A stretch of DNA of 64,000 bases from assembly GCA_018466975.1 (NCBI GenBank), contig CM031555.1, positions 2,542,001-2,606,000 on the forward strand, in the 5' to 3' direction. Position numbers and translations under genes: made by a program. This DNA is from Sparassis latifolia. Taxonomy: Eukaryota > Basidiomycota > Agaricomycetes > Polyporales > Sparassidaceae. Shown in pieces: positions 26,341 through 53,507 of this stretch; position 1 is the stretch's first letter, and every line of letters starts with the position of its first letter. The notes below the pieces were generated by a model. That model was not told the origin of the DNA. It saw only the letters and a program-made list of their open reading frames with translations, and made no database searches.

Positions 26341-26359
26341 CACCGGAGACGGGGACTAA

Positions 26360-26885
26360 TATCTAAGTTCCTTACATTGTGGGAACATCCGGCCTAACAT
26401 TGTACATGTATGACGGCCCGTATGTAGCTCCGACGGTCGAAAATATGTTTATAATGTAAGGCCTGATGTCTGGGCATGCGATACCCAAATCACACATTGA
26501 TAATGTGTGATATTGCGACATATACAATGTTCGCAAATGGCTATGTTACCATATAACATTCGTCCGAAAATTTTAGGTCTCGTTCGGCATGTCCGACGGG
26601 AAGAAATTCTGATCGACATTATGCCTTTCAGGGCAGACAACAGATTAAATATCGAACTAGTATAAGGGCAACACAAAGTTACAATGTATGATCATTTGAC
26701 ATTTGACATTAGAGTCTATATATGAGGTGAGATGTCAGGGCCTCACACCCTCGACCTAATATTCAAACTGTAAGGAGGTCGGACACCCATAGCGCCGCTA
26801 AGCGGCTTGATGAGTGGCACACTCGATGGCCGCTTAGTGGTCATTGGATCGCCAAGTGTACCGCTCAGCGGCTTTTTAACTGGTC
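26360..26885. promoter_or_regulatory. Subterminal motif clusters of the giant element (left end)
   Basis: ACATTG/CAATGT-type words recur about nine times in the first 370 bp (for example 26371, 26395, 26492, 26522, 26680). Three copies of the near-palindrome CCGCTWAGCGG lie at about 26797, 26829 and 26862. Both sets are present in mirror order at the right end. CACTA transposases and their partner proteins bind short subterminal repeats; that these serve so is inference. Confidence 0.45.
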
Positions 26886-27045
26886 GTGGGAGATCGCACA
26901 AGCACAAGCACAAGTTCGATCAAAGGAAGTACATTAACTGTATATAATGAGAAAGCGGCAAATGACAGGACATCGACAAACAGCACAGGATGCAACGACG
27001 AGGGGCAAGGGACAGGAACAGCACGTAAAATTATGAGGAAACCAC

Positions 27046-29393
27046 TTATTTGCACACAAGCTGGGCCAAGTCATCCCTATCCGCCCTAAGTGTCCTGCTG
27101 CCTTCTTCCAGTACTAGAACAAGCGGGTCTGCCATGCCCCGCATCGTTTTGCCGTATGCTCCGAAGTTGGGGCCATGCTTACACACGATCGCATAATCGC
27201 CAGGGCCTGGTCGCAATATGGCGAGGTCTTGGAGAGAGACATCGGCATATTCTAGCTTTTGTGTCCAGTACTCGCATTGCACCTTGCTGTCCACTGGGGA
27301 GGCTCCCTTCACCGTGGTCATCAGCTTGTCTCAGAGTTGACTGGCTGTGCACATGAACTTAAAGCGATAAGTATGGAACGCAGGTGCCACAGCCGCATCC
27401 AGCATCCATCCATTGGGTGAATTCAGCGGACATTTTCTGTTGATGATGAGGCTACGCACCATTAGGTTCGACTAAAGACATCGATCCATCGGGTCCTAAT
27501 GTGGATTCAGTGGACGCTCGGTAGTGGCAGTGCGGTTACGCACCATTAAGTTCCACCGAATACGCCCACGCTGAATCTGTGTCGTGTGACGCGGGTTCTA
27601 ATTCGTGGCCCAATGAGGTCCGAGGCCGCTCAGGGAGCGGACCACGCTTCACCGTGTTGATGTTGCCCCTGCAATGAGGCAGTTAGATATGACCAGAACT
27701 ACAAGTAGTGAATCTTACCTTTCTTCTGACCGGAATGCGATCTCGGGCTTTTGGAACAAGAGGACGCCCCTCGAGGTTAAAAGCTTGGCTTCAAGCTCAA
27801 CTTCGTAATCGCCGTGGTACGTGACGTTTCACAATGTGCCCACAAATCCCTTCAAAGGGCCTTTGATGACACGCACTGCTTGCCCAATGTCGGGATTCCA
27901 TCAGTCAGGATGCTTGAGGGCAAGCTCCATCTCCACCTCTTCCTCCATTTGCGTCTCAGAGCGTGAGGGGCGCTGCTCTCCCGGCCTTGATACTGTCACC
28001 GACGGCTGTATCAAGGTCCATTCTGCCTTGGACTCTGTGAGTAAGAGATCCCAGGGTAACACATGATGCTATATCGAGTTTTGAGCATCGATAACATCGC
28101 AGGTGGTGGGACATACCTCAGAGGTTTCCAACACAGAAGAAGTATGTATGAAAGACTCCCGTTATTGGGTTTCTAGTTCGCTGAGAAAAGTTCAGTACTT
28201 GGAAGCATCGTCGTACGTAGAACATACATGCTGAGGAAAGTTCCACTATTAAGGATTGCAATTGCATGAGAAGTGCACAACGTACCTCGACTTTGTTCGC
28301 GTGAACAATCGTGACATCGAAATCATCCACGGCAATCACTTGCCCTTCCAAGCCCGCATGGAGGCCCGTCTTAACTTTGACCGCATCGCCAACTGCCCAA
28401 AGGGGGTGTAACTGAGTTACAGGTAGCACGAGAGATGAAAGTTCGTCATCCAACTTCTCGTGGTAGAGATTGGTTAGCGTAGCCTGTCCATTAATGACTG
28501 AATGCACGACACCGATGAGGCCGCATTGCTCGCCCTGTATAACGATCACACGCATGCCTGCAGCTGGTTCGAAGTCAACACAGAATAGAATGAGCTTCAC
28601 TATCGCTGTCTTTGGCATGAATTTCGCTGCATTAAAGATGAATACGTCATTTCAAGTCGCGTGGATGTCGAAAGTCACCCGGTCCAAAGTGAGTTCGAGC
28701 TGCAGGAGGCCGCCTTTGAACTTCTTGCCCTTGAGAATATGTATCAGCCGATCACCTTCGCTTTCTGTCACAGCCTCTCTGAACAACTCCTTCAGTAATG
28801 CTGGCGGCATCGGTTGCTGAGAAGTTCTTCCGTGCTGCCACTTTTTTGTAGTAGGCAAGCGCGGAACCACCCAGACGCGGAGGAGAGAGTCCTCTCGCGA
28901 CTCCACGAAGGCCACATCGTGCTTATATGTACCACGCGAGATGCACACCCAAGGAGAGAGGAAACCATTTTCCATGGCTTGAAGGTGGATTCCATCGGGG
29001 GCAAGAGAGATGACTGTGCCACCCGACTGTGAGGCCCGCTGTGCACATTTAGCCGCCATGTCTCTCTCCGTAATAGACCGGGCCATGGCTTCTGCGTCAG
29101 CAGCATCGTCGCCGACACATGCATTATCAAGACGCGCCCAAGCTTGTTGAGTGCGTTGGACATCGGCGAGCAACTCGGCTGGAAACAAGCTGTAAGATAT
29201 ATCCAATAACGCAGCTGAGACACTTACCCAGTTCCTCCTCCTCTTCTTCTTCTTCCTCCTCCTCCTCCTCCTCCTCGTTGTCGACGATAGCCTCGATATC
29301 CAAGTATGGGTTCTTGGCATTCCATGCATGAGGATTGAAAACGTAAGAACTGACTGCAGTACTTACCGCTTTCCGCGCACGCTTTGAAGACAT
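27046..29393 (-). pseudogene. Spt5-like KOW-domain protein, left-repeat copy
   Basis: Start at 29393 (MSSKRARKA). A 54-nt intron leads to NPYLDIEAIVDN and a poly-Glu run of 15 residues; a second intron starts with a good donor (GGTAAG, about 29228) and leads to AELLADVQRTQQAWARLDNA. WVVPRLPTTKKW follows. Two KOW-type segments are clear (MRVIVIQGEQCGLIGVVHSV; GDAVKVKTGLHAGLEGQVIA) and a third lies further on (GQAVRVIKGPLKGFVGTL). The order acidic N-terminus, linker, KOW repeats resembles Spt5, the Pol II elongation factor; a bona fide NGN domain is not evident. Broken by TGA at 28652-28654 (CGA in the right copy), another TGA in the third KOW (GTL-stop-NV), and a TGA shared with the right copy before the third KOW. 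Confidence 0.7.
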
Positions 29394-30199
29394 GGCAGCG
29401 TCAGTGGTACCGAGAGGTCGGGATAGTGTCCATTAGATTTGAGCAATCGTATCTTATGAGACGTCGCTTGGAGTACACGAGGCTTCGACCACGAGGTGTT
29501 CATCACCAATCAGCCCACATGTACAATTACTTCCGAGTAACACGCGCAATGTCCTTCAACGTCGCACTGCTGGTGATGAGGTGTCACCGAGAAGATTTCC
29601 GATGTAGCGGCTGCTCCTGCAGTTGTGCATGAGCATGCACAAGCGCCGCATTCTCCTATACATTGAGAAACATGTCAGTATAGCTACACCGCCCTTCGTC
29701 CATATCGTGCACATACATTATTGTCAGCCTGTCAGCCTATCAACCTCAGCATGTACAATCGACCTGGCGCGATCTGGCTGTAACTGCAAGGGTGCGTTAA
29801 TGTCAAGGGTCTTCAGAAATTTTTACGCGTAAGGTAATCAATAACCAAATCGGCTGCAATTCGATTGTATCCCACTCTGGTATGCAACCGATGCAAAAGG
29901 GCGATGAAACAAACTGTCCGGCAGCTTGGCTACCTATACTATAGCTAAAGATAACGAGGACCCCACAAGAATAAATAACAACGAAACTACAAAAGAGAGT
30001 GAACTACACTACAACGTTACTAAAGGCTCCAGGCCACATAGCAAATGACAAGCGCTACGGCCGAGAGATGGTGGTGGAACGAGAACAAGAGGAAAGAAAC
30101 ATCCATTCCACCTCCAGCGGAGTTTTGACGCATCTCATCGTTTTGTCCCACGCAAATAAGGCAGCCACACATCACGGGCCACTTGTCATGAGCTGCTTG

Positions 30200-30727
30200 T
30201 CACGAGCCGCTTCTCAGCCTCTGTTTGTCTCGCACAAATAGACCGCGTGTGCCATCTGGCCGCTGTCCAGAATTTGGGCGCCTTCTTCCTTGCCTTCGAA
30301 TTTCCATCATCCCTGCGATATCGGCCAGTTCTTCCGTCGCCATGTCTGCCTCCTCCTCCTCGCCCATGCCCTCCTCACCATTGTCGTTGTCAATGCCATC
30401 ACCCTCTTCCGCTCCAGTGCCGTCGTCGCTGCCCTTTTCCTCACCCACTTCGATGCCCTGAGGGCTTCCTCGTAATGCCCTCTTCCTCACTGAGCCATTC
30501 TCGTGCGCGCCGCTGCGCCTGTTTGAATTAGGGGCCGATAGTATACATTGTATTAGAACCAGCCACATCTCTGATGATTGAGTGCCATATCGGGTTTGTA
30601 CCAAACATAAACATAAGAACAGCGAAAATGCATCATTAATTGGCGCCTGAGCTGCTAGAACAACCCACAGGCCAATATTGGCTCTGCTTGAAAGCCTGGA
30701 ACTGTACGTTGTTGCCCATGGACGCAT
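30200..30727 (-). CDS. Acidic low-complexity protein, copy 1 of 3 (left repeat)
   Basis: Open for 175 codons. The C-terminal 110 residues are well kept in all three copies: KRALRGSPQGIEVGEEKG, an acidic Asp/Glu/Gly stretch (EEGMGEEEEADMATEELADI), then a basic end (RRQGRRRPNSGQRPDGTRG, ending RDKQRLRSGS). No known family. The first 60 residues are less certain and may be untranslated. Whether it is translated at all is unproven, but the frame is intact in three copies. Confidence 0.4.
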   Translation of the reverse strand: MRPWATTYSSRLSSRANIGLWVVLAAQAPINDAFSLFLCLCLVQTRYGTQSSEMWLVLIQCILSAPNSNRRSGAHENGSVRKRALRGSPQGIEVGEEKGSDDGTGAEEGDGIDNDNGEEGMGEEEEADMATEELADIAGMMEIRRQGRRRPNSGQRPDGTRGLFVRDKQRLRSGS

Positions 30728-31127
30728 CGTCCACGGCTCACTCTGGCTATACAGATATTACAGATGCTACATAACGATCACTCGCAAATACCGGTCCTTC
30801 GTCAAGGTCTCGACGTCTCCGCTTTCTACAATACCTGGTGCGTATTCATGGAATGGTCAGAAATTACGAGGATCGACCACCTGAGCGTACCATGTGAGTG
30901 CTCTACGCACATCGCTTACATGAATTCCGTGCTGACGCCGTGCTTCTCGTTGACTTCCGCGACAGGTATTCGTGGAACCATCCGGCACGACGCTTCTAAT
31001 CCCAGGTATGTTGCCTTTATATATCCTGCCTGCTGCTGCCAGGCTGATAATGCGAACCCATCGCCATCCGTCCCGGATTTCGCTGTCCACGCTACTCCCT
31101 CAGAATTTCGAAAAGTCGGCCGCAAAT

Positions 31128-31509
31128 ATGTCAGACAAGGTGGATGTGGAAGTTTGCTGTCCACATTTCAGTTGCTGACGTTACTCGCCTACAGGTCTCC
31201 GTGTCCCCGGTCCAATGTCCAAAATCTAGTACCGAGACGGACGTGGCGAGCACATCCCATCCGCCTTCGTCGGACACGCGCACGTCCTTACTGGAGGAGA
31301 TCGAGGACCTGAAGCGTGAGCACGCGCGTATGCAAGCGAATGCAATGCAGTTAGTTGCAGATATTCGTGCGATGCGGAAATGTTTAGACGAGTCAGAACA
31401 ACACACGGAGGAGCTCAGCCAAATAGTAGATGCCACAGCCGATGCCGTGGACTCTCTCTGTGCAGAGGTCATTGCCGACAGTGCGTACACGCGTTCAACA
31501 TTGTACTGA
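31128..31509 (+). CDS. Short coiled-coil protein, MSDK type (left copy)
   Basis: Exon 1 is 31128-31139 (MSDK), then a 55-nt GT-AG intron, and exon 2 is 31195-31509 (VSVSPVQCPKSSTETDV...). The shared part ends in LLEEIEDLKRE. The C-terminal half, HARMQANAMQLVADIRAMRK then CLDESEQHTEELSQIVDATA, is a heptad-like coiled coil unique to this copy. Total about 108 residues. The start straddles the inner end of the left inverted repeat, so promoter and N-terminus are shared with the mirror gene at 48710-48215 while the coil differs. Function unknown; a dimerisation partner of the transposition proteins is possible. Confidence 0.6.
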
Positions 31510-32218
31510 TGTAGTCTTTATTCACTTCCTCCACTAGTTCGCTGAGCAACCTTTAGGGGTTAGCTGTTCGTGTGTTGGGTCATGTATAGTTTGTCATCCG
31601 AGAACGTATTCATTGTTATCTTGCGCTGCATTGTCGTCGGAGAATGTATGTATTCGTTATCAAGTTCTTTCATCATGTGGGCGCCGGTGAAGCCTGCGAA
31701 GCTCGCGCGTGAGACTCGAAAGCATATGGACCCTCTTCCACTATCCCATACCCAGCACACAATTCATTGTGAATTTAAGGTAAAGATTTATAAAACAAGT
31801 TCTTTCCCGGCCATTGAAAAAAAGGGTTAGATTTTCACACTGCTTCTGTCATCGCTAGAACCCTTCAAAGCTTCACAGCTAAGTAGGAATCGGGATAGTG
31901 GGATTTTGTATAAAATTTTGTATTAAAAGTGTCGCGACATGCCGATGATCGGAGGAAATATATTGTGCCATGTTGCCCGACTGTCTTCGGCTTCAGATAT
32001 TTTTTCTGTAGCATATGGAATGCTCAAACTGCATAGAAAGAAGTATCACCCTTCTGGGGCATGTCGGTCACTAATAGTATTCCACCTATAATTATATAAT
32101 AGGGTCTCATGACTATGCCTATATATATTGCGGTGTCTCCGAGTCTTTCCCCATCTCACGTTCGGAGCATACCACCACCACCACCACCATTCCCCCACTG
32201 CTGTCCAAACTGATCCTC
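31510..32218. other. Intergenic part of the giant element
   Basis: No convincing gene. The segment from about 32100 to 32218 is the promoter-like leader (TATATATATTG, then (CCA)n) that recurs inverted at about 47625-47720 before the mirror gene. Confidence 0.4.
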
Positions 32219-32492
32219 ATGGCTAGTCGTGGTCGTAAGTGATGATTATACATTTTGACTTGAATCGATATTAACATTGTTTACAGAGAGCACTTACATG
32301 GCCTCGGTGTCCTCCATTAGTGACTTACAGGAGGAGGTTCGGACCCTTAGGGCCAGCATATATCGGACCAAGCAGCTCATCGAGGATGTAGACCGGTCCA
32401 TGATGCTCGTTCGCGAGGTCTTCCCTGTCAGCAGCAAGGGAGGTACATCACTCTCCTCCATGCAGCGCTCCTGCAATGTTACTGGCATCTAA
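32219..32492 (+). CDS. Short coiled-coil protein, MASRG type (left copy)
   Basis: Exon 1 is 32219-32234 (MASRG plus one base); an intron of 52 nt (32235-32286, GT-AG) joins to QSTYMASVSSISDLQEEVRT, LRASIYRTKQLIEDVDRSMM and LVREVF. The total is 73 residues ending CNVTGI. The helix after SISDLQ has hydrophobic a/d positions typical of a short coiled coil. Its leader and first intron are almost the same as those of the inverted mirror gene at 47615-47277, but the second half is different. No known family. Confidence 0.55.
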
Positions 32493-33341
32493 CGTAAGTC
32501 TTTGACGAGTTGGTACATTACTTGACTGATCAGATGTGCATGTAGGTGCCATAAGGCTAAGGGGAGGCTGTTGGGAGGCTCGTGGGGCTGTGCAGGGACC
32601 GTGGGGAGATTGTCGTCGCTGTTTGTTGTCTACTTACCGTAAATTCAATGGAGATTGTCAGTCTGTGTTTGTTGTCTACTTATAAATTCAATGTATCTGA
32701 AGCTCGGTGAAGGTGGAGGTGAATGTGTGCTGCAATCAATACTATGGCTCACAAGATCGTCGGCATGCCCCCCAAGTCGGCACCTCGCTCAATTAGCCCT
32801 TTCCCCTGCCTCTACCACTTAGTTATCTCTTATATGTATGATTTTATAGTACTACAACATTCTTGAGGTTGAACGAGCTCAAACGGATCGGTATTGGAGG
32901 AGTCCCTTCTTGACCTCCAATGTAACGCAGACTCACGCTGGCTAGTCACTGGCCGAAGTCTGCCGCGAGCGTCGGCAGCGGGGTTTCAAGTGGTGGCGTT
33001 CACAACGACACGGTCACGACCTTCGCGCATTAGGCTGCTGAGCGGAGTAACAAAACGGCACGCGTTACTGTCTGTGACATATGCGTTACTTTTGCGTTAC
33101 TGCCGACTGGGCATGCCGACGATCTTGTGAGCCTTAGTATCCCCCGTTCAGGCAGCAGCCCGGGACAGCCGACTTATAACTTTACTGACCATTGGTGCAA
33201 ATGGGGTCGACTCGTACAGCGCAGATCTGGAAACAACATGGGATAACGCTACATGAGCGCATGTAGGGCGCCGCTCGAATCCAAACAATTGAGTCTACAT
33301 TCATGACTAAAATCGAGAGCAGTACAACAATGCAGGATATT
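32493..33341. other. Intergenic region of the giant element containing a nested MITE
   Basis: Apart from the MITE at 32742-33137, I see no gene or RNA in this stretch. Confidence 0.4.
32742..33137. mobile_element. 396-bp MITE with TA duplication (Tc1/mariner-like)
   Basis: The left end is CTATGGCTCACAAGATCGTC and the right end, read inward, CTAAGGCTCACAAGATCGTC. The match continues GGCATGCCC and AGTCGGCA to about 38 bp. The dinucleotide TA flanks both ends (32740-32741, 33138-33139). It encodes nothing and would need a transposase in trans. Confidence 0.8.
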
Positions 33342-34080
33342 TTACAACACGGCCGGTGCAACCTGCAGACAAATAAGCATCGGTCATTTGAGGTTCAAAC
33401 TATACTTACAGATGCGCGGGCCTCCTGCTCCTTCCCCCTATCCTTCTTGGTCATGTAGGTCGTGTTTCCTAACTTGGTCTTCAGAACGTCTCTGACCGGC
33501 CAACTCTTCTCGTAGTGCGCGAGCTGGGGATAGAGCTTCGTAGCCTGATGAAGTTCTGTAACCGTCAGTGCCGATCGCGTATGCAACTACCCGACGTACC
33601 TGGGCATACACTGCGTCCAACATCGTCTGATTCTGTTTCGAGATTGTCTTGTCCAATTCCAAATACCTGACTGCCAAGTCACCGATGTCCTTCTGTACTT
33701 GCTAGTCAGCTACAGTCTTTGAAAACATTGCAAGATATGCTTCATACCAGAAACTTGTCATACTTCGCGGTATCCCACCCGTGTCTCCCTAACTCATCGC
33801 TAAGCGTGTAACCTCCTCGGCCTGGGCGACCTACTTGGCCGTCAGGCTTAGGGATGACGGGTTCTGATGCTGCTGCATCAGCTCCTGGGGAATGCGCGTC
33901 GCTAGCAATGCTTTGGCGTGTGCCAGCCTGAACATCTGATTGAGGCTTGATAAGGTGGAATTTCGACCTTGCCGATGAGGGAGGAGGAGTGAGAAGGCGT
34001 TCGGCATCGAAACGCACGCGTCCCGATGAGGGTTGGTACTGGCGCTGGATGTGATGTTTCGTTATCGGCAGTTGGGGCAT
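33342..34080 (-). CDS. Conserved agaricomycete transposon-associated protein, GRGGYTL...WPVRD type
   Basis: Start at 34080 (MPQLPITKHHIQRQYQPSSG). Exons 34080-33748, 33692-33600, 33544 to about 33414, and a short last exon ending in a stop at 33344-33342. Conserved segments are RPGRGGYTLSDELGRHGW near residue 95, AVRYLELDKTISKQNQTM, ATKLYPQLAHYEKSWPVRDV and LKTKLGNTTYMTKKDRGK. I recognise the pattern (GRGGY.L...L.W, then YP.L..Y...WPV.D) from many hypothetical proteins of mushroom genomes; its function is unknown. The frame is intact with GT-AG introns. Position beside the transposase suggests an accessory or cargo role; a DNA-binding role is only a guess. Confidence 0.65.
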
Positions 34081-34269
34081 GCTGGTCGTGGATGGGGAAG
34101 CTCAAAGCCGGGAGAGGTCGCGCCTTCGCGCTAAGTCGCGGTGGACAATAGAACAATAGTCTTACCAATTCAAGTCGCACACTCCATAAGGATTGCAGGC
34201 GACTGACATATACAAAAGAATCAGGCAACCGTAGACCACTGACCATGTTCGACCTCGAATGAGCCAAAC

Positions 34270-35190
34270 AGACACTGCTACGGAAAAAGTACAGTAAATC
34301 AACTTTCAGCAGGTACACGGTGGACATACTTACGAAACTCTGCAACAAGCACAATTTAACGGTCACACCAACTGGCCGGTCGAACGCAGTAAAGCAGGAC
34401 TACATCGATGCACTCTGGAAATATGTGAGTAAATCTCACAGCGAACATAGCAGAAGGCACTTACAGTAGTCAGCGACATGCCCCTGCGGCTCCAACGCTC
34501 GGTCCTTACGCACACGAGGATACCGCGGCCTCAGCACCTCTTGAGAAGTCGACGTCGGAGATCGCACGCAAGCGTAAATCGCCCGAAGAGCGCAACGCGG
34601 AGCGACGAGCAAAATGAGTGCGTCTGACATACAAGCATGTAAGCCTATGATTGCAACGTTCAACCATGTGGTGACCAATGTTATAGTCAAATGCACCCGC
34701 AGACGGCGGGACGGTGGCGCGGCCAGCCAGCAAACGTGCTCTCTCGGGAGAGCGGGAGCGATCGCAAAGCCCTAAACGAGCTCACCTGCAACCCTCCGGC
34801 ATGCCTCCTCCAGCCCCTTCAGGCCTTCGCGACCGAGACGCTTCGTGTATTTATTCCACGATCGGTAAACGATTGGCTCCGCAGAGTTTACGGAAAAAGA
34901 TGCGAGAACTAACAAGAAGGCTCGCGAAGATCAGGTATGACCTCTTGAATTGCGGTGAGACGAGAAAACGTACTGACTCACCTATCGCGGAGAAGCCCAA
35001 CGTAGTCCTGTGCATCAAGATCCCAGCACGGAAGCTGAACGATGAGCAGGCCAAAGTCGTTCATATCAAGCTCTTTGCGAAAGCTAAAGACTGGAAAGCT
35101 ATACGGGAAATTGAATGCCACTGCTCCCAAGACGGAAGCCTGAATCTTCTTCAGGTCGCAGCACAGCTCGGTGTACATGGCAAATGTCGT
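34270..35190 (+). CDS. Possible SAP-like domain protein (fragmentary model)
   Basis: The reading LTKLCNKHNLTVTPTGRSNA followed by VKQDYIDALWKY (about 34320-34425) resembles a SAP-type DNA-binding helix pair. After an intron comes SQRHAPAAPTLGPYAHEDTA, then a Lys/Arg-rich stretch (EIARKRKSPEERNAERRAK) that runs into a stop. A further open segment (34714-34935, PASKRALSGERERSQSPKRA and a basic end) and another after 34985 (KPNVVLCIKIPARKLNDEQA) look coding-derived. I cannot fix all splice sites. The 3' end abuts the third copy of the inverted-repeat segment at 35218, which probably truncated it. Confidence 0.35.
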
Positions 35191-35217
35191 GTAAGTGGGG
35201 TGCATCGCGGTGGGACT

Positions 35218-36556
35218 AGAGCACTCACATGGTACGCTCAGGTGGTCGATCCTCGTAATTTCCGACCATTCCATGAATACGCGCCAGGTATTGTAGAAAG
35301 CGGAGACGTCGAGACCTTGACGAAGGACCGGTATTTGCGAGTGATCGTTATGTAGCATCTGTAATATCTGTATAGCCAGAGTGAGCCGTGGACGATGCGT
35401 CCATGGGCAACAACGTACGGTTACGGGCTTTCAAGCAGAGCCAATATTGGCCTGTGGGTTGTTCTAGCGGCTCAGGTGCCAATTAATGGTGCGTTTTCGC
35501 GGTTCTTATGTTTATATTTGGTACAAACCCGATATGGCGCTCAATCATCAGAGATGTGGCTCGGATGGCTATGATACAGGTTCTAATACAATGTATACTA
35601 TCGGCCCCTAATTCAAACAGGCACGGCGGCGCGCACGAGAACAGCTCAGCGAGGAAGAGGGCACCTGCGCAGAAGAGGGCGTTACGAGGAAGCCCTCAGG
35701 GCATCGAAGTGGGCGAGGAAAAGGGCAGCGACGACGGCACTGGAGCGGAAGAGGGCGATGGCGTCAACAACGACAACGGCGAGGAGGGCATGGGCGAGGA
35801 GGAGGAGGCAGACACGGCGACGGAAGAACTGGCCGATATCGCAGGGATGATGGAAATTCGAAGGCAAGGAAGAAGGCGCCCAAATTCTGGACAGCGGCCA
35901 GATGGCGCACGCGGTCTATTTGTGCGAGACAAACAGAGGCTGAGAAGCGGCTCGTGACAAGCGGCTCGTGACAAGTGGCCCGTGATGTGTGGCTGCCTTA
36001 TTTGCGCGAGACAAAGCGACGGGATGCATCAAAACTCCGCTGGAGGTGGAATGGGCATTTCTTTCCTCTTGTTCTCGTTCCACCACCATCTCTCGGCCGT
36101 AGCGCTTGTCATTCGCTATGTGGCCTGGAGCCTTTAGTAATGTTGTAGTGTAGTTCGCTCTCTTTTGTAGTTTCGTTGTTATTTATTCTTGTGGGGTCCT
36201 CGTTATCTTTAGCTATAGTATAGGTAGCCAAGCTGCCGGACGGTTTGTTTCATCGCCCTTTTGCGCCGGTTGCATACCAGAGTGGGATACAATCGAATTG
36301 CAGCCGATTTGGTTATTGATTACCTTACGCGTAAAAATTTCTGAAGACCCTTGACATTAACGCACCCGTGCGGTTACAGCCAGATCGCGCCAGGTCGATT
36401 GTACACGCTGAGGTTGATAGGCTGACAGGCTGACAATAATGTATGTGCACGATATGGACGAAGGGCGGTGTAGCTATACTGACATGTTTCTCAATGTATA
36501 GGAGAATGCGGCGCTTGTGCATGCTCACGCACAACTGCAGGAGCAGCCGCTACATC
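35218..36556 (+). repeat. Internal third copy of a terminal-repeat segment (about 1.34 kb)
   Basis: Matches 48936-50254 in the same orientation and, inverted, about 29590-30905. It carries the same acidic-protein frame. Sharp borders: similarity starts at AGAGCACTCACATGGTACG (about 35218) and ends at GCCGCTACATC (36556), after which the sequences are unrelated. Confidence 0.85.
35508..35957 (+). CDS. Acidic low-complexity protein, copy 2 of 3 (internal copy)
   Basis: 149 codons, homologous to the frames at 30727-30200 (minus) and 49224-49655. It has an extra in-frame insertion of 18 bp (KRAPAQKRAL instead of KRAL). The end RRPNSGQRPDGARG...RSGS is kept. Confidence 0.4.
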   Translation: MFIFGTNPIWRSIIRDVARMAMIQVLIQCILSAPNSNRHGGAHENSSARKRAPAQKRALRGSPQGIEVGEEKGSDDGTGAEEGDGVNNDNGEEGMGEEEEADTATEELADIAGMMEIRRQGRRRPNSGQRPDGARGLFVRDKQRLRSGS

Positions 36557-36811
36557 CAAAATCTTTGCGGATTTGATCATGAAGCAATTGAAAAAACTGC
36601 AGCGCGGCCGCCATTTGTCTGAAATTGGTATAGACGTGTTCAGGTGATGTGATGCCTGTGCCTATTCATTCCAACGGCTTATTGTCTGGGTCGGTTTTAT
36701 ATCTAGGATGACGTGGAGTGCTTGCTGGTAACGACGCCGATCTGGAGCGTGCTCTCCTCCAGTCGATCAGTGGTGTATATGGAGCAACTATCGCAGACCC
36801 GAGGAGGAGAG

Positions 36812-38449
36812 ATGGCTTTGGAAAGAACACTGTCTGGTCATTCGAAACCAGTCAATTCTATGCTTGTCGCCCAGGATGGTAGTCTACTTCTCAGTGCCGG
36901 TACGTTGTGTGTTAGTGCATTTCTGGTATTCACTTATGTTGCTTCATTCGCAGGCGACGATGCTGTGCTGAAGATATGGAGTTTACGATCGGGAGAACAG
37001 CGGCAAGAAATTTTTTGCACGTTCCACGGGCCTATTGGGGCGATCGCGTGGGTTGATCTGGGGGGCGGATTGGATCGAGCCTTCGTGTTCGGTTGTGGCG
37101 ATGGGTCAATACATTTGTATGTGCGAGATGATGCGACTGTAAGCTATTCATGAAGTGTCTTTTCATCTGTTTCATCCATTAGCAGGATGTCTTTCTTTTT
37201 CGTTCGCTTGTGTGCGCTCACGAGGGATACGTGGAGGATATTCGATTCGATCCCAGCCATGGTCGACTAGTCACTATTGGACAAGGAGCAGTTCAAGTGT
37301 GGAGGTTTGAATCGGAAGGTATGTGGTACGATGTCATTCCAATGTCGTGCATTTTGACGGTGTGCGCAGGTTCGATATCTGCTGTATGGGCAACGAAGCC
37401 TCGTAAGGATTACATGGCTCGAGCAGTGCGCTTCTGTGATGAAGGCGCAAGCGTTGTAGTTTTTTATGTGGAATCACATGAGATGTAAGTCACGCTATTG
37501 CTTTTCGGGGAACGTATAATGATCGCAGTTAGTTGCTGCTACTGCATAGAGCCATTCGGATTAAAGTGGTCGAAGATCTTGCCCACTCGAATGTGAGTCT
37601 TAGTCCTCTGTTGGAGCATGGATTTAATACTTCATCAACAGCGGATATGCCGATTTATCCATCGACGGAAGAAGTCTCTGGGTGACTAACCTATGTGATG
37701 GGCTCGACCAGTATCGATTTCCGTCTATGGAGCGTGTTCGCAGTTATCCCTACCGGATCGTGAACAATTATCCTGTGCATGTCGTGATACATGAATCGTC
37801 GGTTGTGGTAGGCGGCGATGACGGTGTCGTACGGATTTTCGACACAACGAACTATCACAACGTTGAGATGCTGCACCATGGTGCAGGTATGGCTTATTTT
37901 ATTTTCATTGACATGTGACGTTAATCTGATGTTAGCAGGGCAATTGGTACAGGTAGTAACAGTGAGTGGCATTGGGGAGGCATGAGGCTGCACTCATACT
38001 TGCAAAGGCTTATAGCACGGAGAGTGAATTCAAGGTAGCGACAGCTTCTTCCGGTGAGGGTTCATGCTGTATCAAGATATGGCAGCGGAAGCAGGTGAGC
38101 TGTGCTGATTATCTCTAGCGGGCTCCGCCAACAACATCGTTATTCACAGAAGGTCGCTCATCGTCGAGATGAGGCGCGAAGGCGTCAGACTGATGTCGGA
38201 CTCGCATGGTGGCACCTCGTAATCACGGTCATCCTCACGATTGTGGTTGTCAATGCAGCTAATTCTGTGAACTGGGAAGCTGTCACGGGTAGCATGTTTG
38301 ACCAAGTCAGGTCGAAGTCACAACTGGGAGCGTCTGTAGTGCCGACGAGCGCATTCAGCGGGGGGGCAACATTGGTAGTAAATTGCGATTGGTTAGATGC
38401 AGTGTGTGAAGACGAGGATGATGACGGAGACAGTGATGATGACATGTAA
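36812..38449 (+). CDS. WD40-repeat protein with a C-terminal membrane segment
   Basis: Start MALERTLSGHSKPVNSMLVA at 36812 (an in-frame ATG at 36713 is less likely). Exons include 36812-36899, 36954-37138, 37186-37318 and 37370-37484; later exons begin near 37546, 37643 and 37940. WD-type blades are visible: SLLLSAGDDAVLKIWSLRSG, FVFGCGDGSIHLYVRDD, LVTIGQGAVQVWRFESEG, SLWVTNLCDGLDQYRFPSM and VVVGGDDGVVRIFDTTNYHN. The last exon (about 38150-38449) has a hydrophobic helix WWHLVITVILTIVVVNAA followed by an acidic tail ending DEDDDGDSDDDM. One splice junction near 37597-37642 does not keep frame cleanly, so the copy may be damaged. Similar membrane-anchored WD40 genes are frequent in agaricomycete genomes; as transposon cargo its role is unknown. 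Confidence 0.65.
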
Positions 38450-43615: not shown

Positions 43616-44227
43616 GAGACAGCCCCCTCTCTCCGGTCCCGAAGCCGGAAATCATGCAAGCATGGCACAATGGCGGGATGGCGCCATGGCAAGCAAACAC
43701 GTCGAACTTTCTTGTCGTTGCGACGAGTATACTCGCCATCGGTCTCATCCGAACTCATGCCTTCTTGACCTAAGGCCATGTGGATAATCTTGACTTTTCC
43801 CCAGATTGCCGGATTGTCTTGAAGGTTGACCTCGATGATGTCACCGTGCCGTTTATACACCTTCAAATATATATAAGTCAAATCGAAATCAAAGACTGAG
43901 ATGACGTACCGTCTCCCTGCAACTGTTCTTCCTACGTTGCTTCTTTGCAGTGTTCCTCGCTGACTCCACTTCTTCGTCCTCCATTAATTCCACTTCTGTG
44001 AATCGCTTGTGAGGCCCGTTCTGCAGCTTGTGCAGGCAACACTGTGATGCCATCGTGATTGTCCACGCTGGATCGGACACAAGCAGTGGGTGCTTGCCTC
44101 CTGCTACCTGCTTGAGAAACTCCTCAGTGACGATGTGGATCACCTCCTTGTTCCACACAGAACTCAGCGGCAACGACCACTCGATCAGGGGAGCAGCGAC
44201 ATTGAGACCATCCGGATGTGCACCCAC
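43603..44227 (-). CDS. Conserved agaricomycete transposon-associated protein, GMSSDE...PWRHP type
   Basis: Exon 1 is 44227-43910 and exon 2 43860-43603, separated by a 49-nt GT-AG intron. Features: a polar N-terminus ending in a basic KKQRRKNSCRET, then VYKRHGDIIEVNLQDNPA, HMALGQEGMSSDETDGEY and KVRRVCLPWRHPAIVPCLHD. The GMSSDE + VRR..WR.P pattern is one I recognise from many hypothetical proteins in mushroom genomes, often near DNA transposons. Function unknown. The gene may have a further 5' exon upstream of 44227 that I cannot identify. Confidence 0.55.
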
Positions 44228-45002: not shown

Positions 45003-46902
45003 ATGGGCTCGAATTATAGCACGCTTCACTCCGGTTCCCCAAGCATACTTGGGAAACGGTCTACTCTCGATGATGCTCTTGACGCACCACCAGCGAAAAG
45101 GCTCATGTCAGAAGTAAGCTTTCTGCATCCTCTGACCTGCAAGCACATATACCAATGATCACAGTTCTTGTGCACCTTGAACCGTTGCACAAAGCAACAG
45201 CGCTGTGGATTTGTCGAAGATGCCCAGGTATGAGTTCTATGCTTTTCATGCCGGTAGTGTACTCATTATTTAACCTTTAGGTTTTGTCCAAGTGTCGCCA
45301 TGAGGAGGACGATTCGCAGCATCACAAGAAACTTAAAGAAGAGAATTCCAATTCACAGACTGATAAGAGGGTTGTTGTGCATGCGGTACGGTCTGCATCG
45401 TGCAGTCAGTATTCAGACTGATGCACTTTCTTAGACACATCGTCCAGTCAATTCAAAGCACGTATTTCCCTTTTTGATGCTCCCGGTCGAGCTAGGCAAT
45501 ATCATTCTCCATATTTTGGCGAACGATCGTGACACGTTATACACACTTTCACTTGTGTCTGGGCTTCTCTGAGTCTACGTACTGCCGCTCTATCTAAAGG
45601 CCGCAGGCTTCATTGATTCCTCGAACAATGTCAGTCCAGTCATAACTTATGAGCACACACGCCCATCATCGTGTGGCGCGGCATGCAAGGCCTTCCTACT
45701 CCCCCATCTATGTGGATCCGTATCATCGCAAATGCAGCAATGGCCAAACACCAGCTTTACGGGTTGGCGGGATTCTTCATCTCGAGTCGTACCCAGCTCG
45801 CTATATCCAACATTGTCATCGAGCTCCACAATGCGCGGCTCGCTCTAGCCACATGCAAGTTCCTACAGACCGTGGCCGCATCAGGGGTGTCGCACCTATG
45901 TCTGAAGTCGTGCTTGTCTAGCGATCTTCGAGCTATTGAGTCTCCTGAAGACATCCCTGTCGTCAACTCCGGTCTATTTTATCCTCGTCTGCAGAAGATG
46001 CAGGTCAAATCTGCCGTATTCTTCTCCTCGGAGTACATTAGTTGGACGGTTCACACCCTCAACAGCGCAGCGCTCACTGCGCTCGATCTCCAGCTCGACA
46101 ACAGAGGTTCACCATCATGGCGTCTTATTTTACCTCACCTCCACATGGAGCATCTGGAAACCCTCTACATCGATGGTGTGCTACCCATCAACACAATTTT
46201 CCATTTCCTCCTTCATCATCCCAGCATACATGAGCTCTGGATTGGTCGCTTTACTCGCCCTGGTTTCCTCCCCTACGCCGCCCGTCCACCTAATATGGAC
46301 CACCTCGAAGTCCTCACGGGTTCTCACGACTACATAATCCCCTTACTTGTGCGGGGTCTCCCTGCACTGCAGCATCTTGTGGTCATACCGGATCATCCTT
46401 CCGCGATTGGCCTATTTCTCGATTCTGAGCTCCGAGGGGTGATAAACGGTGCTCGACGCTGTACGCGTCTCCAAGAGCTCGACATCGCCCTTCCCTGTGG
46501 TTACATCGCACAGCCAGAATCTGACTCGTTCTTCATTGTAGACGACCCACAACACCTTCGCACGGAACGCGGTCTTTCGAACGTGCACACGATCACCATC
46601 CGCGCTACATGGGACGCAAATGAATTTACCTTATCTTCAACTCATCTGAGTGTTCTTGTAAGTTGCCCATTTCATTCATTGCTTCGCCGCCATTCACATC
46701 AGCACAGAACAGCTTACCGGGGTGGCTAGATCTCTTTCCTTCAGTACGACACTTGCGTATAGTCGAGGGGCGCAGCGTCAAGTTAGACGCCGATCGACGT
46801 GCACAAGTCACTCAATTGTATCGTGCTTGTCCTTACCTAGAAGATATATCGATGTATGCGGGGGATAGGCACCTGGCAGAGTGTTGGAAGCGCAAGATCT
46901 GA
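45003..46902 (+). pseudogene. F-box/LRR-like protein
   Basis: Start MGSNYSTLHSGSPSILGKRS at 45003 with small exons separated by GT-AG introns (first intron 45115 to about 45165). An exon near 45436 carries LMLPVELGNIILHILANDRD and TLYTLSLVSGLL, an F-box-like helix pair. Then comes a long frame (45671-46657) with leucine-rich repeat spacing (LTALDLQLDNRGSPSWRLIL, LHMEHLETLYIDGVLP, LPALQHLVVIPDHPSA, RLQELDIALPCG), joined through the 46658-46707 intron to LPGWLDLFPSVRHLRIVEGR and a stop at 46900-46902. F-box proteins select substrates for SCF ubiquitin ligases. A TGA at 45570-45572 (CGA expected in LL-R-VYVLPLYL) and an unresolved frame change near 45690 indicate damage. Confidence 0.6.
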
Positions 46903-46952: not shown

Positions 46953-47168
46953 TGACGATTGTCTTGCGAGATCAGCCTCCAACCTTAAGACTTTCCACGA
47001 CTTCCGAAGGTCATTTCAGGCACAGTAAATAAAAGTACAACAAACGCGGCCGACAATCATGATGATTGTCTTGCGAGATCAGCCTTCAACCTTAAGACTT
47101 TCCACGACTTCCGAAGGTCATTTCAGGCACAGTAAACAAAAGTACAACAAATGCAGCCGACAATCATA
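46953..47168. repeat. Tandem duplication of about 107 bp
   Basis: GATTGTCTTGCGAGATCAGC through AAAGTACAACAAAYGCRGCC appears twice in direct order (from about 46956 and about 47063) with few differences. Confidence 0.8.
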
Positions 47169-47276
47169 CAGAACCCCCGCGGAATGCCCCACACCCGACT
47201 GCCTCCCAGTAACCTTGTGCACATCTGATCAGTCAGGTTATCTACCGATATAAATCACTCATCTTAAGGACTTACG

Positions 47277-47615: not shown

Positions 47616-48214
47616 GAGGATCAGTTTGGACAGTAGTGAGGGATGGTGGTGGTGGTGGTGGTGGTATGCTCCGAACGTGAGATGGGGAAAGACTCGGAGA
47701 CACTGCAATATATATAGGCATACCCCTCATGGGTCCCACGTGCCACGAAATTTATAATCTGACAGATCCAAAACAACATACGCATTTTCACGAATTTCGC
47801 ATCACGTACTCTGGGGTAAGAGAGGGTTGCCCATAGTACACGAAGCAAAATTTGGGGAAATGCATCTACTGTTTCCTCGAAAGGTAGCTCCAGACTTATG
47901 GTGGCTTCAGACTTATGGTATAGTTATGTCCACTTCAAACGAATTTGTTTTCAGCAAGGATTATAGAAAACTTATTTAATCTATCTTTAAATGTCCACAT
48001 CGCCGAGCGGCACTTTGCGCACGCATGTACCTCACCTTGCCCGTCTTCTCATCGCGAGTCACACAGATGGCCTGGCAGAATAAATCGACGAGGTCCTTCA
48101 TGGTCTATACTTATCCTGTCGAGTCTCACACGCGACCTTTGCAGCCTTCGTGGGTGCCCGCCTAACGGAAGGACTAGAGATAATTCTCCATCCGCAAACA
48201 GAGCGCAAGATACA
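47616..48214. other. Intergenic part of the giant element (right half)
   Basis: 47625-47720 is the inverted counterpart of the leader at 32100-32218, including a (TGG)n run at 47643-47663. The rest shows no gene. Confidence 0.4.
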
Positions 48215-48710
48215 TTAATATTGAGCGAGGTATATGACACGAACAGCGAAACCAACGCCCCCCGCAAGCAGCTCAGGCACCTGGGAATAGTGAATACAGG
48301 TGTCATCAATAGGATTTTGATCCACGTACGCACCATAAGGGGGAGGGGGAGGGGTGCTCAATGATCCTCGCTCAGCGCGGACCAGTGCAGCCAGGTCAGC
48401 TGTAGCCTCTGCAAACTCTCGAACATGAACTGCACGTCGTTCCGACTGTTCGACTCGGAGCTCCATGGTCTTCACCTCCTTCTCTAAGATAAGGATCAGC
48501 TGCATTAATTTTTGTTGTTCACGCTTCAGGTCCTCGATCTCCTCCAGTAAGGACGTGCACGTATCCGACGAAGGTGGACGGGATGTGCTCGCCACGTCCG
48601 TCTCGGTACTAGATTTTGGACATTGGACCGGGGACACGGAGACCTGTAGGCGAGTAACGTCAGCAACTAAAATGTGGACAGCAAACTTCCACATCCACCT
48701 TGTCTGACAT
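48215..48710 (-). CDS. Short coiled-coil protein, MSDK type (right copy)
   Basis: Exon 1 is 48710-48699 (MSDK), then a 55-nt intron, and exon 2 is 48643-48215. The N-terminal half (VSVSPVQCPKSSTETDV..., ending LLEEIEDLKRE) is shared with 31128-31509 because it lies in the inverted repeat. The C-terminal half differs: QQKLMQLILILEKEVKTMEL, RVEQSERRAVHVREFAEATA, then a Pro-rich linker (STPPPPPYGAYVDQNP). About 146 residues. Both proteins therefore share one promoter and N-terminus but carry different coiled coils. Confidence 0.6.
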
Positions 48711-49223
48711 ATTTGCGGCCGACTTTTCGAAATTCTGAGGGAGTAGCGTGGACAGCGAAATCCGGGATGGATGGCGATGGGTTCGCATTATCAGCCTGGC
48801 AGCAGCAGGCAGGATATATAAAGGCAACATACCTGGGATTAGAAGCATCGTGCCAGATGGTTCCACGAATACCTGTCGCGGAAGTCAACGAGAAGCACGG
48901 CGTCAGCACGGAATTCATGTAAGCGATGTGTGTAGAGCACTCACATGGTACGCTCAGGTGGTCAATCCTCGTAATTTCCGACCATTCCATGAATACGCGC
49001 CAGGTATTGTAGAAAGCGGAGATGTCGAGACCTTGATGAAGGACCGGTATTTGCGAGTGATCGTTATGTAGCATCTGTAATATCTGTATAGCCAGAGTGA
49101 GCCGTGGACGATGCGTCCATGGGCAACAACGTACGGTTCTGGGCTTTCAAGCAGAGCCAATATTGGCCTGTGGGTTGTTCTAGCGGCTCAGGCGCCAATT
49201 AATGATGCATTTTCGCTGTTCTT

Positions 49224-49655
49224 ATGTTTATGTTTGGTACAAACCTGATATGGCACTCAATCATCAGAGATGTGGCTCGGATGGCTATGATACAGGTTCT
49301 AATACAATGTATACTATCGGCCCCTAATTCAAACAGGCGCGGCGGCGCGCACGAGAATGGCTCAGTGAGGAAGAGGGCATTACGAGGAAGCCCTCAGGGC
49401 ATCGAAGTGGGCGAGGAAAAGGGCGGCGACGACGGCACTGGAGCGGAAGAGGGTGATGGCATTGACAACGACAATGGCGAGGAGGGCATGGGCGAGGAGG
49501 AGGAGGCAGACATGGCGATGGAAGAACTGGCCGATATCGCAGGGATGATGGAAATTCGAAGGCAAGGAAGAAGGCACCCAAATTCTGGACAGCGGCCAGA
49601 TGGCACACGCGGTCTATTTGTGCGAGACAAACAGAGGCTGAGAAGCGGCTCGTGA
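49224..49655 (+). CDS. Acidic low-complexity protein, copy 3 of 3 (right repeat)
   Basis: 143 codons homologous to 30727-30200 and 35508-35957, with the same acidic centre (GDDGTGAEEGDGIDNDNGEE) and basic end. Intact frame; function unknown. Confidence 0.4.
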   Translation: MFMFGTNLIWHSIIRDVARMAMIQVLIQCILSAPNSNRRGGAHENGSVRKRALRGSPQGIEVGEEKGGDDGTGAEEGDGIDNDNGEEGMGEEEEADMAMEELADIAGMMEIRRQGRRHPNSGQRPDGTRGLFVRDKQRLRSGS

Positions 49656-50461
49656 CAAGCAGCTTGTGACAAGTGGCCCGTGATGTGTGGCTGCCTTATT
49701 TGCGTGAGACAAAGCGATGAGATGCGTCAAAACTCCGCTGGAGGTGGAATGGGCGTTTCTTTCCTCTTGTTCTCGTTCCACCACCATCTCTCGGCCATAG
49801 CGCTTGTCATTTGCTATGTGGCCTGGAGCCTTTAGTAACATTGTAGTGTAGTTCGCTCTCTTTTGTAGTTTCGTTGTTATTTATTCTTGTGGGGTCCTCA
49901 TTATCTTTAGCTATAGTATAGGTAGCCAAGCTGCCGGACGGTTTGTTTCATCGCCCTTTTGCGCCGGTTGCATACCAGAGTGGGATACAATCGAATTGCA
50001 GCCAATTTGGTTATTGATTACCTTACGCGTAAAAATTTCTGAAGACCCTTGACATTAACGCACCCTTGCGGTTACAGCCAGATCGCGCCAGGTCGATTGT
50101 ACACGCTGAGGTTGATAGGCTGACAGGCTGACAATAATGTATGTGCACGATATGGACGAAGGGCGGTGTAGCTATACTGACATGTTTCTCAATGTATAGG
50201 AGAATGCAGCGCTTGTGCATGCTCACGCACAACTGCAGGAGCAGCCGCTACATCGGAAATCTTCTCGGTGACACCTCATCACCAGCAGTGCGACGTTGAA
50301 GGACATTGCGCGTGTTACTCGGAAGTAATTGTACATGTGGGCTGATTGGTGATGAACACCTCGTGGTCGAAGCCTCGTGTACTCTAAGCGACGTCTCATA
50401 AGATACGATTGCTCAAATCTAATGGACACTATCCCGACCTCTCGGTATCACTGACGCTGCC

Positions 50462-52801
50462 ATGTCTTCAAAGTGTGCGCGGAAAGCGGTAATTACTGCA
50501 GTCAGTTCTTACGTTTTCAATCCTCATGCATGGAATGCCAAGAACCCATACTTGGATATTGAGGCTATCGTCGACAACGAGGAGGAGGAGGAGGAGGAGG
50601 AAGAAGAAGAAGAGGAGGAGGAACTGGATAAGTGTCTCAGCTGCGTTATTGAATATATCTTACAGCTTGTTTCCAGCCGAGTTGCTTGCCGATGTCCAAC
50701 GCACTCAACAAGCTCGGGCACGTCTTGATAATGCATGTGTCGGCGACGATGCTGCTGATGCAAAAGCCATGGCCCGGTCTATTACGGAGAGAGACATGGC
50801 TAAATGTGCACAGCGGGCCTCACAGTCGGGTGGCACAGTCGTCTCTCTTGCCCCCGATGGAATCCACCTTCAAGCCACGGAAAATGGTTTCCTCTCTCCT
50901 TGGGTGTGCATCTCGCGTGGTACATATAAGCACGATGTGGCCTTCGTGGAGTCGCGAGAGGACTCTCTCCTCCGCGTCTGGGTGGTTCCGCGCTTGCCTA
51001 CTACAAAAAAGTGGCAGCACGGAAGAACTTCTCAGCAACCCATGCCGCCAGCATTACTGAAGGAGTTGTTCGGAGAGGCTGTGACAGAAAGCGAAGGTGA
51101 TCGGCTGATACATATTCTCAAGGGCAAGAAGTTCAAAGGCGGCCTCCTGCAGCTCGAACTCACTTTGGACCGGGTGACTTTCAACATCCACGCGACTCGA
51201 AACGACGTATTCGTCTTTAATGCAGCGAAATTTGTGCCAAAGACAGCGATAGCGAAGCTCATTCTATTCTGTGTTGACTTCGAACCGGCTGCAGGCACGC
51301 ATGTGATCGTTATACAGGGCGAGCAATGCGGCCTCATCGGTGTTGTGCATTCAGTCATTAATGGACAGGCTACGCTAACCAATCTCTACCACGAGAAGTT
51401 GGATGATGAACTTTCATCTCTTGTGCTACCTGTAACTCAGTTACACCCCCTTTGGGCAGTTGGCGATGTGGTCAAAGTTAAGACGGGCCTCCATACGGGC
51501 TTGGAAGGGCAAGTGATTGCCGTGGATGATTTCGATGTCACGATTGTTCACGCGAACAAAGTCGAGGTACATTGTGCACTTCTCATGCAATTGCAATCCT
51601 TAATAGTGGAACTTTCCTCAGCATGTATGTTCTACGTACGACAATGCTTCCAAGTACTGAACTTTTCTCAGCGAACTAGAAACCCAATAATGAGAGTCTT
51701 TCATACTTCTTCTGTGTTGGAAACCTCTGAGGTATGTCCCACCACCTGTGACATTATCGATGCTCAAAACTCGATATAGCATCATGTGTTACCCTGGGAT
51801 CTCTTACTCACAGAGTCCAAGGCAGAATGGACCTCGATACAGCCGTCGGTGACAGTATCAAGGCCGGGAGAGCAGCGCCCCTCACGCTCTGAGACGCAAA
51901 TGGAGGAAGAGGTGGAGATGGAGCTTGCCCTCAAGCATCCTGACTGACGGAATCCCGACATCGGGCAAGCAGTGCGTGTCATCAAAGGCCCTTTGAAGGG
52001 ATTTGTGGGCACATTGCGAAACGTCACGTACCACGGCGATTACGAAGTTGAGCTTGAAGCCAAGCTTTTAACCTCGAGGGGCGTCCTCTTGTTCCAAAAG
52101 CCCGAGATCGCATTCCGGTCAGAAGAAAGGTAAGATTCATTACTTGTAGTTCTGGTCATATCTAACTGCCTCATTGCAGGGGCAACATCGACACGGCGAA
52201 GCGTGGTCCGCTCCCTGAGCGGCCTCGGACCTCATTGGGCCACAAATTAGAACCCGCGTCACACGACACAGATTCGGCGTGGGCGTATTCGGTGGAACTT
52301 AATGGTGCGTAACCGCACCGCCACTACCGAGCGTCCGCTGAATCCACATTAGGACCCGATGGATCGATGTCTTTAGTCGAACCTAATGGTGCATAGCCTC
52401 ATCATCAACACAAAATGTCCGCTGAATTCACCCAATGGATGGATGCTGGATGCGGCTGTGGCACCTGCATTCCATACTTATCGCTTCAAGTTCATGTGCA
52501 CAGCCGGTCAACTCTGAGACAAGCTGATGACCACGGTGAAGGGAGCCTCCCCAGTGGACGGCAAGGTGCGATGCGAATACTGGATGCGAAAGCTAGAATA
52601 TGCCGATGTCTCTCTCCAAGACCTCGCTATATTGCGACCAGGCCCTGGCGATTATGCGATCGTGTGTAAGCATGGCCCCAACTTCGGAGCATATGGCAAA
52701 ACAATGCGGGGCATGGCAGACCCGCTTGTTCTAGTACTGGAAGAAGGCGGCAGGACGCTTAGGGTGGATAGGGATGACTTGGTCCAGCTTGTGTGCAAAT
52801 A
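50462..52801 (+). pseudogene. Spt5-like KOW-domain protein, right-repeat copy
   Basis: Start MSSKCARKA (50462-50488), intron 50489-50542, then NPYLDIEAIVDN and poly-Glu. The next donor is GATAAG where the left copy has GGTAAG, so the second intron has lost its GT. From AELLADVQRTQQARARLDNA the frame is open to the first two KOW segments (THVIVIQGEQCGLIGVVHSV; GDVVKVKTGLHTGLEGQVIA), including TRNDVF where the left copy has a stop. A TGA before the third KOW (HPD-stop-RNPDIGQAVRV) is shared by both copies. The last part (52527-52801) reads MTTVKGASPVDGKVRCEYWM and ends DDLVQLVCK. Architecture resembles Spt5 (acidic N-terminus followed by KOW repeats). Confidence 0.7.
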
Positions 52802-53507
52802 AGTGGTTTCCTCATAATTTTACGTGCTGTTCCTGTCCCTTGCCCCTCGTTGTTGCATCCTGTGCTGTTTGTCGATGTCCTGTCATTTGCCGCTTTCTCA
52901 TTATATACAGTTAATGTACTTCCTTTGATCGAACTTGTGCTTGTGCTTGTGCGATCTCCCATGACCAGTTGAAAAGCCGCTGAGCGGTACACTTGGCGAT
53001 CCAATGACCACTAAGCGGCCATCGAGTGTGCCACTCGTCAAGCTGCTTAGCGGCGCTATGGGTGTCCGACCTCCTTACAGTTTGAATATTAGGTCGAGGG
53101 TGTGAGGCCCTGACATCTCACCTCGTATATAAACTCTAATGTCAAATGTCAAATGATCATACATTGTAACTTTGTGTCGCCCTTATACTAGTTCGATATT
53201 TAATCTGTTGTCTGCCCTGAAAGGCATAATGTCGATCAGAATTTGTTCCCGCCGGACATGCCGAACGAGACCTAAAATTTTCGGACGAATGTTATATGGT
53301 AATATAGCCATTTGCGAACATTGTATATGTCGCAATATCACACATTATCAATGTGTGATTTGGGTATCACATGCCCAGACATCAGGCCTTACATTATAAA
53401 CATATTTTCGACCGTCGGAGCTACATACGGGCCGTCATACATGTACAATGTTAGGCCGGATGTTCCCACAATGTAAGGAACTTAGATATTAGTCTCTGTC
53501 TCTGGTG

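What the first reader, a model, noticed from the sequence alone, without database searches (positions are those of the whole stretch)
26341..53507. A 27-kb CACTA-type transposon inserted precisely into an older helicase gene
The termini are CACCGGAGACGGGG and CACCAGAGACAGAG, the flanking duplication is TTA, and excision restores HAI-RWSK in the helicase frame. The element holds a Tnp2 transposase (38643-42439). At 27,167 bp, with many non-transposase genes, it is far larger than ordinary CACTA elements and looks like a cargo-carrying mobile element.
Basis: partly seen in the sequence, partly recalled or inferred. Interest (0 to 1): 0.88.

Follow-up and report, generated by a model that had tools for sequence, protein, structure and literature searches.

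The report
Giant mushroom CACTA transposon carrying SPT5-like genes
In a fungal genome, likely of a cauliflower-mushroom relative, a 27-kb CACTA-type jumping element has inserted copies of itself at several sites; each of its two 5-kb ends holds a gene resembling the transcription factor SPT5, which likely serves the element rather than the fungus.

Summary
The same genome holds 16 places where the two flanks abut (empty sites). Five of five copies with both ends (the window's included) have perfect, mutually different 3-bp duplications (TTA, TGA, AGT, TTT, CCA); three besides the window's are full-length, 27.1-28.5 kb. The whole unit moved.

The inverted repeats are about 5 kb long, and each carries an SPT5-like gene (KOW domains). 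The core carries a Tnp2 transposase, an F-box-like and a WD40-like gene. Arms of one element resemble each other more than, on average, those of other elements. A segment between two inverted modules is flipped in 2 of 4 complete copies. In nine segments 60-83% of changes between copies are CpG C>T, pointing to methylation. Transposase and F-box-like genes recur as near neighbours in Sparassis crispa.

It is a fungal EnSpm/CACTA element and a new variant: exceptional size and arms, SPT5-like cargo. What the cargo does is inferred; many cargo frames are broken, the window's transposase frame has two stops, and selection could not be shown.

The parts
26338..26340 (.). target-site duplication TTA, left
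26341..31319 (.). left terminal inverted repeat, about 4.98 kb (97.0% to the right arm)
27049..29432 (-). SPT5-like gene, left-arm copy (limits approximate); one stop within the core exon in this copy
29592..36565 (.). internal segment, inverted in copies C3 and C9, bounded by inverted 1.35-kb modules (29592-30905 and 35217-36565)
36707..37915 (+). WD40-like gene, several exons (weak beta-propeller matches, below cut-off)
38646..42439 (-). Tnp2 (Transposase_21) transposase gene, several exons (start approximate); two in-frame stops (41194-41196, 40516-40518)
43675..44213 (.). 539-bp stretch inverted in this copy relative to the five other fetched copies that hold it (C3, C4, C5, C7, C9)
45573..46899 (+). 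F-box-like gene: 358-aa open frame 45653-46726; the upstream part lies in another frame here (45573-45845), while copy C9 has a single 490-aa frame. The F-box label comes from a UniRef name only
48519..53507 (.). right terminal inverted repeat, about 4.99 kb
50423..52799 (+). SPT5-like gene, right-arm copy (428-aa open frame 50493-51776 plus a C-terminal KOW-like exon; limits approximate)
53508..53510 (.). target-site duplication TTA, right
25300..26340 (+). left part of the interrupted PIF1-helicase repeat (stretch used as query)
53511..54550 (+). right part of the interrupted PIF1-helicase repeat (stretch used as query)

Best explanation
This is a copy of a multicopy 27-kb CACTA/EnSpm-type DNA transposon family of a basidiomycete (likely a Sparassis relative), whose Tnp2 transposase would cut at the CACC...GGTG ends and paste the whole unit with a 3-bp target duplication, and whose 5-kb inverted ends each carry an SPT5-like gene that likely serves the element itself. 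Shown: identical boundaries with different 3-bp duplications at five sites, base-exact empty sites, whole-length copies, the SPT5-like gene in both arms, arms on average more alike within than between elements, and CpG C>T as the main change between copies. Inferred: cut-and-paste by this transposase (motifs present, enzyme not tested); gene conversion between the arms as the reason for their likeness; methylation by the host as the cause of the CpG decay; and a role of the SPT5-like, F-box-like and WD40-like proteins in the element's own expression or escape from silencing. The window copy itself likely makes no full transposase, because its frame has two stops; it would depend on another copy to move again.
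For: Copies and duplications. Empty sites. Arms. Tnp2: Transposase_21 E 2.4e-12; a C3-copy query is 95% identical over 87% to S. crispa SCP_0800590. SPT5: KOW2_Spt5 and KOW over their cut-offs, Spt5 chains of the PDB down to E 1.2e-6, collinear over 216 chain residues; one clear host SPT5 at C14:616819, the other two matches of the KOW2_Spt5 model, both below cut-off, being the window's own arms. F-box-like gene near the transposase elsewhere: locus tags SCP_0312460 and SCP_0312500, both clusters with longest contig 3,996,915; and two proteins of an unnamed source, 70% and 80% identical, both with longest contig 10,752. Arms: same-element arms are sisters in 6 of 7 elements after CpG columns are removed, 0.16-0.64% within against means of 0.61-1.10% between. 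CpG: 60-83% of changes from the majority base at 11-18% of positions, in nine segments.
Against: pN/pS between copies does not differ consistently between the coding frame and wrong frames (SPT5 0.51 against 0.52-0.69; short segments scatter widely), so selection on cargo is not shown. Many cargo frames are broken: over the whole 428-aa SPT5-like frame only 3 matches are full-length and stop-free (window right arm, C9, C7); over a 296-codon core 11 of 15 arm copies show no stop, but that count ignores insertions; the window's F-box-like frame is shifted near its start. The SPT5-like gene was found in Sparassis only as two annotated proteins, not shown to lie inside an element there. Single between-element arm distances can be smaller than a within-element one. 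Structure predictions were too poor to use (mean pLDDT 35 and 36). No expression or mobility data.
Confidence: 0.8

Rival explanations
1. The SPT5-like, F-box-like and WD40-like genes are dead passengers captured by chance, carried only because the ends still work. (Odds raised from 0.25 to 0.3, and those of the best explanation lowered from 0.85 to 0.8, on recounting the broken frames.)
For: No selection signal within the genome; many copies hold stops or shifts.
Against: The SPT5-like frame is still open over 428 aa in three places, although it is only 27% identical to the genome's other SPT5 match; related F-box-like proteins at 93%, 88-90% and 70% identity exist as long predicted proteins in other lineages, near the same transposase in S. 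crispa by locus tag.
Confidence: 0.3
2. A nested composite: a small CACTA element into which other elements inserted, rather than one 27-kb unit.
For: Internal repeats and a third copy of a 1.35-kb arm module; C7 has about 20 kb that does not match the window's element.
Against: Four complete copies share the same order over the whole length apart from two inversions and small indels, with their own duplications at the outer ends.
Confidence: 0.05
3. Segmental duplication or assembly artefact rather than transposition.
For: No raw reads were available.
Against: Homology stops at the same base in five copies, each with a different 3-bp duplication, and the flanks abut at 16 empty sites.
Confidence: 0.02
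4. A Starship-type cargo element.
For: Large, fungal, several genes.
Against: No tyrosine-recombinase captain in the frames scanned (of the right arm 49000-53507 only one frame stretch was scanned, its mirror arm in all six); long TIRs and Tnp2 instead.
Confidence: 0.02

Closest known systems
Fungal EnSpm/CACTA elements that carry a TET/JBP dioxygenase (PMC12730594; passages seen)
   Same: CAC...GTG ends, 3-bp duplication, EnSpm-like transposase with C(2)C and H(3-4)H, an extra gene thought there to act against silencing; a Puccinia coronata protein (P0061) aligns over 99% of the transposase query at 29% identity
   Different: no TET/JBP match in the frames scanned; here SPT5-like, F-box-like and WD40-like genes; 5-kb inverted ends
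Large CACTA elements of soybean (20.5 kb, PMC2613891, title only) and red-algal EnSpm of 16-20 kb with 4-5 ORFs (PMC6431247, passage)
   Same: superfamily and great length
   Different: 27 kb, fungal host, gene-bearing multi-kb inverted ends (arm lengths of those elements not looked up)
Plavaka (PlavakaA/B)
   Same: same wider CMCT clade (PMC12730594); weak Plavaka profile match of the S. crispa homologue, E 0.0073, under cut-off
   Different: ends CACC..GGTG, not TGT..ACA or CATCA..TGATG
Starships (known also from the basidiomycete Tremella fuciformis, PMC13066641, passage)
   Same: giant fungal cargo elements
   Different: other recombinase; no captain found

Membership tests
EnSpm/CACTA | 5'-CAC...GTG-3' ends | tested here: met
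   10 of 10 ends of the five copies with both ends begin CACC
EnSpm/CACTA | 3-bp target-site duplication | tested here: met
   5 of 5 copies with both ends
EnSpm/CACTA | Tnp2 transposase (PF02992) | tested here: met
   E 2.4e-12 in window; 69 of 72 listed homologues carry PF02992 (candidates capped at 7998)
EnSpm/CACTA | D-D-C(2)C-H(3-4)H-E arrangement | tested here: inconclusive
   read by eye in the alignment: VDWFNP, TDLPGSRKV, CSQC, NHHNALH, FERLIG; C(2)C/H(3-4)H rule from PMC12730594; which acidic residues are catalytic is my reading, no enzyme test
EnSpm/CACTA | active transposition | not testable with these tools
   no strains or reads
Plavaka | TGT..ACA or CATCA..TGATG ends | tested here: not met
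   against PMC12730594
Starship | tyrosine-recombinase captain (DUF3435) | tested here: not met
   no such Pfam match (right arm 49000-53507 only in part)
SPT5 | KOW domains in the order of Spt5 | tested here: met
   collinear with PDB 8qsz chain Y residues 469-684; KOW2_Spt5 over cut-off; domain numbering of the chain recalled
SPT5 | NGN domain (Spt4 binding; recalled) | tested here: inconclusive
   no NGN match in Pfam scans of these frames; gene model incomplete

The most novel reading that the evidence does not exclude
A CACTA lineage that has made a transcription elongation factor its own: an SPT5 derivative without the NGN domain, kept in two outward-facing, mutually homogenised doses inside 5-kb inverted ends, together with an F-box-like and a WD40-like gene, as a kit that keeps RNA polymerase II running through, or frees, methylated copies of the element.
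Probability: 0.25. Interest if true: 0.8.

Novelty: new variant of a known kind. Interest (0 to 1): 0.62.

Why it matters
Giant cargo elements of fungi are mostly discussed as Starships, moved by tyrosine recombinases (general knowledge; listing). Here a classical DDE-type superfamily moves 27 kb with resident genes in a mushroom-forming lineage, and one resident is a relative of a core transcription factor. If the SPT5-like protein acts on the element's own transcription, it is a second route, beside TET/JBP, by which fungal DNA transposons may answer silencing, and it can be tested directly. The homogenised 5-kb ends and the flipping segment point to recombination inside single elements.

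Tried and rejected
Selection on cargo from pN/pS between copies: uninformative, because control frames gave similar ratios and changes are dominated by CpG decay (matches shorter than 85% and 80% of a segment were dropped, insertions ignored). Raw arm tree and first CpG-free tree set C3, C9 and C12 arms apart, because the last columns of some arms are not homologous; redone on the first 4,350 CpG-free columns with five 50-column windows dropped for the tree. Structure predictions of the F-box-like and SPT5-like proteins: mean pLDDT 35 and 36, not used, no fold search made. Rfam: no match at gathering score in the window. Literature (open-licence PMC library only): no listed paper joins SPT5 with a fungal transposon (20 of 24 listed; 10 of 133; 10 of 29; 8 of 68); no paper on this family among those listed (12 of 12; 8 of 97); no giant fungal CACTA in the listings (9 of 9; 4 of 4; 12 of 89; none found). 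Species name: not settled; S. crispa and S. latifolia proteins are close, not identical.

Full report
Observation. The ends CACCGGAGACGGGG and (reversed) CACCAGAGACAGAG lie at 26341 and 53507, flanked by TTA on both sides. The flanks joined with one TTA read ...KIVHHAIRWSKEVPYII.... Searching the window's own genome (41.4 Mb, 22 contigs) with each flank, the two matches abut at the exact base at 16 places (counted by hand from the 34 and 36 matches, the window's own place left out); one of them (L037) was read at the junction and matches PIF1-like helicase. The target is therefore a multicopy PIF1-helicase repeat.

Copies. The first 860 bases of the element find 41 matches in the genome (a lower bound), 14 of which, the window's two arms included, cover at least 780 bases at 90-100% identity. 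Seven further places were fetched. Four elements including the window's are complete: 27,167, 27,136 (C4), 27,166 (C3) and 28,470 bp (C9); a fifth, C12, is 14,534 bp, lacking the transposase, WD40-like and F-box-like part but keeping both ends. All five have perfect 3-bp duplications, all different: TTA, TGA, AGT, TTT, CCA. C5 and C7 lack the left end, and for C19 no right end was found in the 30 kb fetched. Over matches that touch the central part, six copies differ from the window's by 0.70-1.35% outside CpG and 2.5-3.7% in all (C12, with 236 aligned bases there and 6.94%, is left out).

Anatomy. The inverted repeats are 4,979-4,989 bp in the window's copy, 5,016-5,017 bp in the C4 copy and about 4,600 bp in C3 and C9. 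Within each lies an SPT5-like gene reading outwards. The window's right-arm frame (428 aa) matches KOW2_Spt5 and KOW above their cut-offs and Spt5 chains of the PDB, E down to 1.2e-6, in one collinear stretch. In the genome there is one clear SPT5 elsewhere (C14:616819, E 1.6e-17), 27% identical to the element's. By position, 38 of the 39 protein matches lie in copies or fragments of this family, one group of them (C7:883146-884646) without an end match beside it. Only three full-length matches are free of stops. The core holds Tnp2, a WD40-like gene (weak) and an F-box-like gene that no Pfam model matches; 'F-box' is the UniRef name of its S. crispa relative.

Dynamics. A 1.35-kb module occurs in both arms and once more inside, inverted to the left one. 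The stretch between the left and the inner module is turned round in C3 and C9 and not in the window's copy, C4, C5, C19 and C12, as recombination between inverted repeats would give. Once CpG columns and non-shared columns are removed, the two arms of an element are sisters in 6 of 7 elements (window, C4, C3, C12, C5, C7; supports 96-100), C9's two arms lying near the root; within-element distances are 0.16-0.64%, mean between-element distances 0.61-1.10%. Some single between-element distances are smaller than a within-element one (window left arm to C9 right arm 0.49, window's two arms 0.60). I read this as gene conversion between arms; near-simultaneous copying is an alternative.

Silencing. 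In nine segments (13-15 copies for arm segments, 6-7 for the others) 84-100% of changes from the majority base are transitions and 60-83% are C>T (or G>A) at CpG, which makes up 11-18% of positions. This is the mark expected of methylated CpG (established knowledge); methylation itself was not measured. Because of it, pN/pS in the true frame does not differ consistently from wrong frames, and I make no claim of selection from these copies.

Relatives. The transposase query (from copy C3) is 95% identical over 87% to S. crispa SCP_0800590 and 87% over 62% to SCP_0312500, and more distantly similar to Laetiporus, Trametes and rust proteins. The F-box-like protein is 93% identical to S. crispa SCP_0312460, whose locus tag is 40 numbers from SCP_0312500 and whose longest contig has the same length, and 88-90% to two S. 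latifolia proteins; a 70% relative and an 80% transposase relative both have longest contig 10,752 in an unnamed source, presumably the same contig. The SPT5-like protein has two Sparassis relatives in the list; the S. latifolia one, searched in G000, is found only in pieces of 91% identity or less. So transposase and F-box-like gene have likely travelled together for long; for the SPT5-like gene this is not shown.

Verdict. A real, multicopy fungal EnSpm/CACTA family, of unusual length and with unusual gene-bearing inverted ends. The mobile-element part is near certain; what the cargo does is a hypothesis.

Noticed in passing
G000:C1:364667-364916, C8:291253 and other places: 15 matches of 72-74 bases at 74-80% identity to the element's tip; the two places read (C1, C8) are nearly identical MITE-like repeats of about 250 bp, so related ends have spread in small form. 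Their duplications were not resolved.
   Followed up: partly
window 29592-36565: Segment flipped in 2 of 4 complete copies between inverted modules; could change which exons face each other.
   Followed up: partly
window 43675-44213: 539-bp inversion private to the window's copy, with no long inverted repeat seen by eye at its ends.
   Followed up: partly
G000:C11:3756895-3760811 and C11:3800963-3802088: A Tnp2 relative (45-50%) and a relative of the WD40-like gene (29-39%) lie about 40 kb apart; possibly a second giant family.
   Followed up: no
window 14288-18676: Arrays of 33-bp and 169-bp tandem repeats in mirrored order (14288-16269 against 17641-18676), perhaps ends of another mobile element.
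   Followed up: no
G000:C12:2510413-2524946: 14.5-kb derivative with both ends, SPT5-like sequence in both arms and a CCA duplication but no transposase: a possible non-autonomous form.
   Followed up: partly
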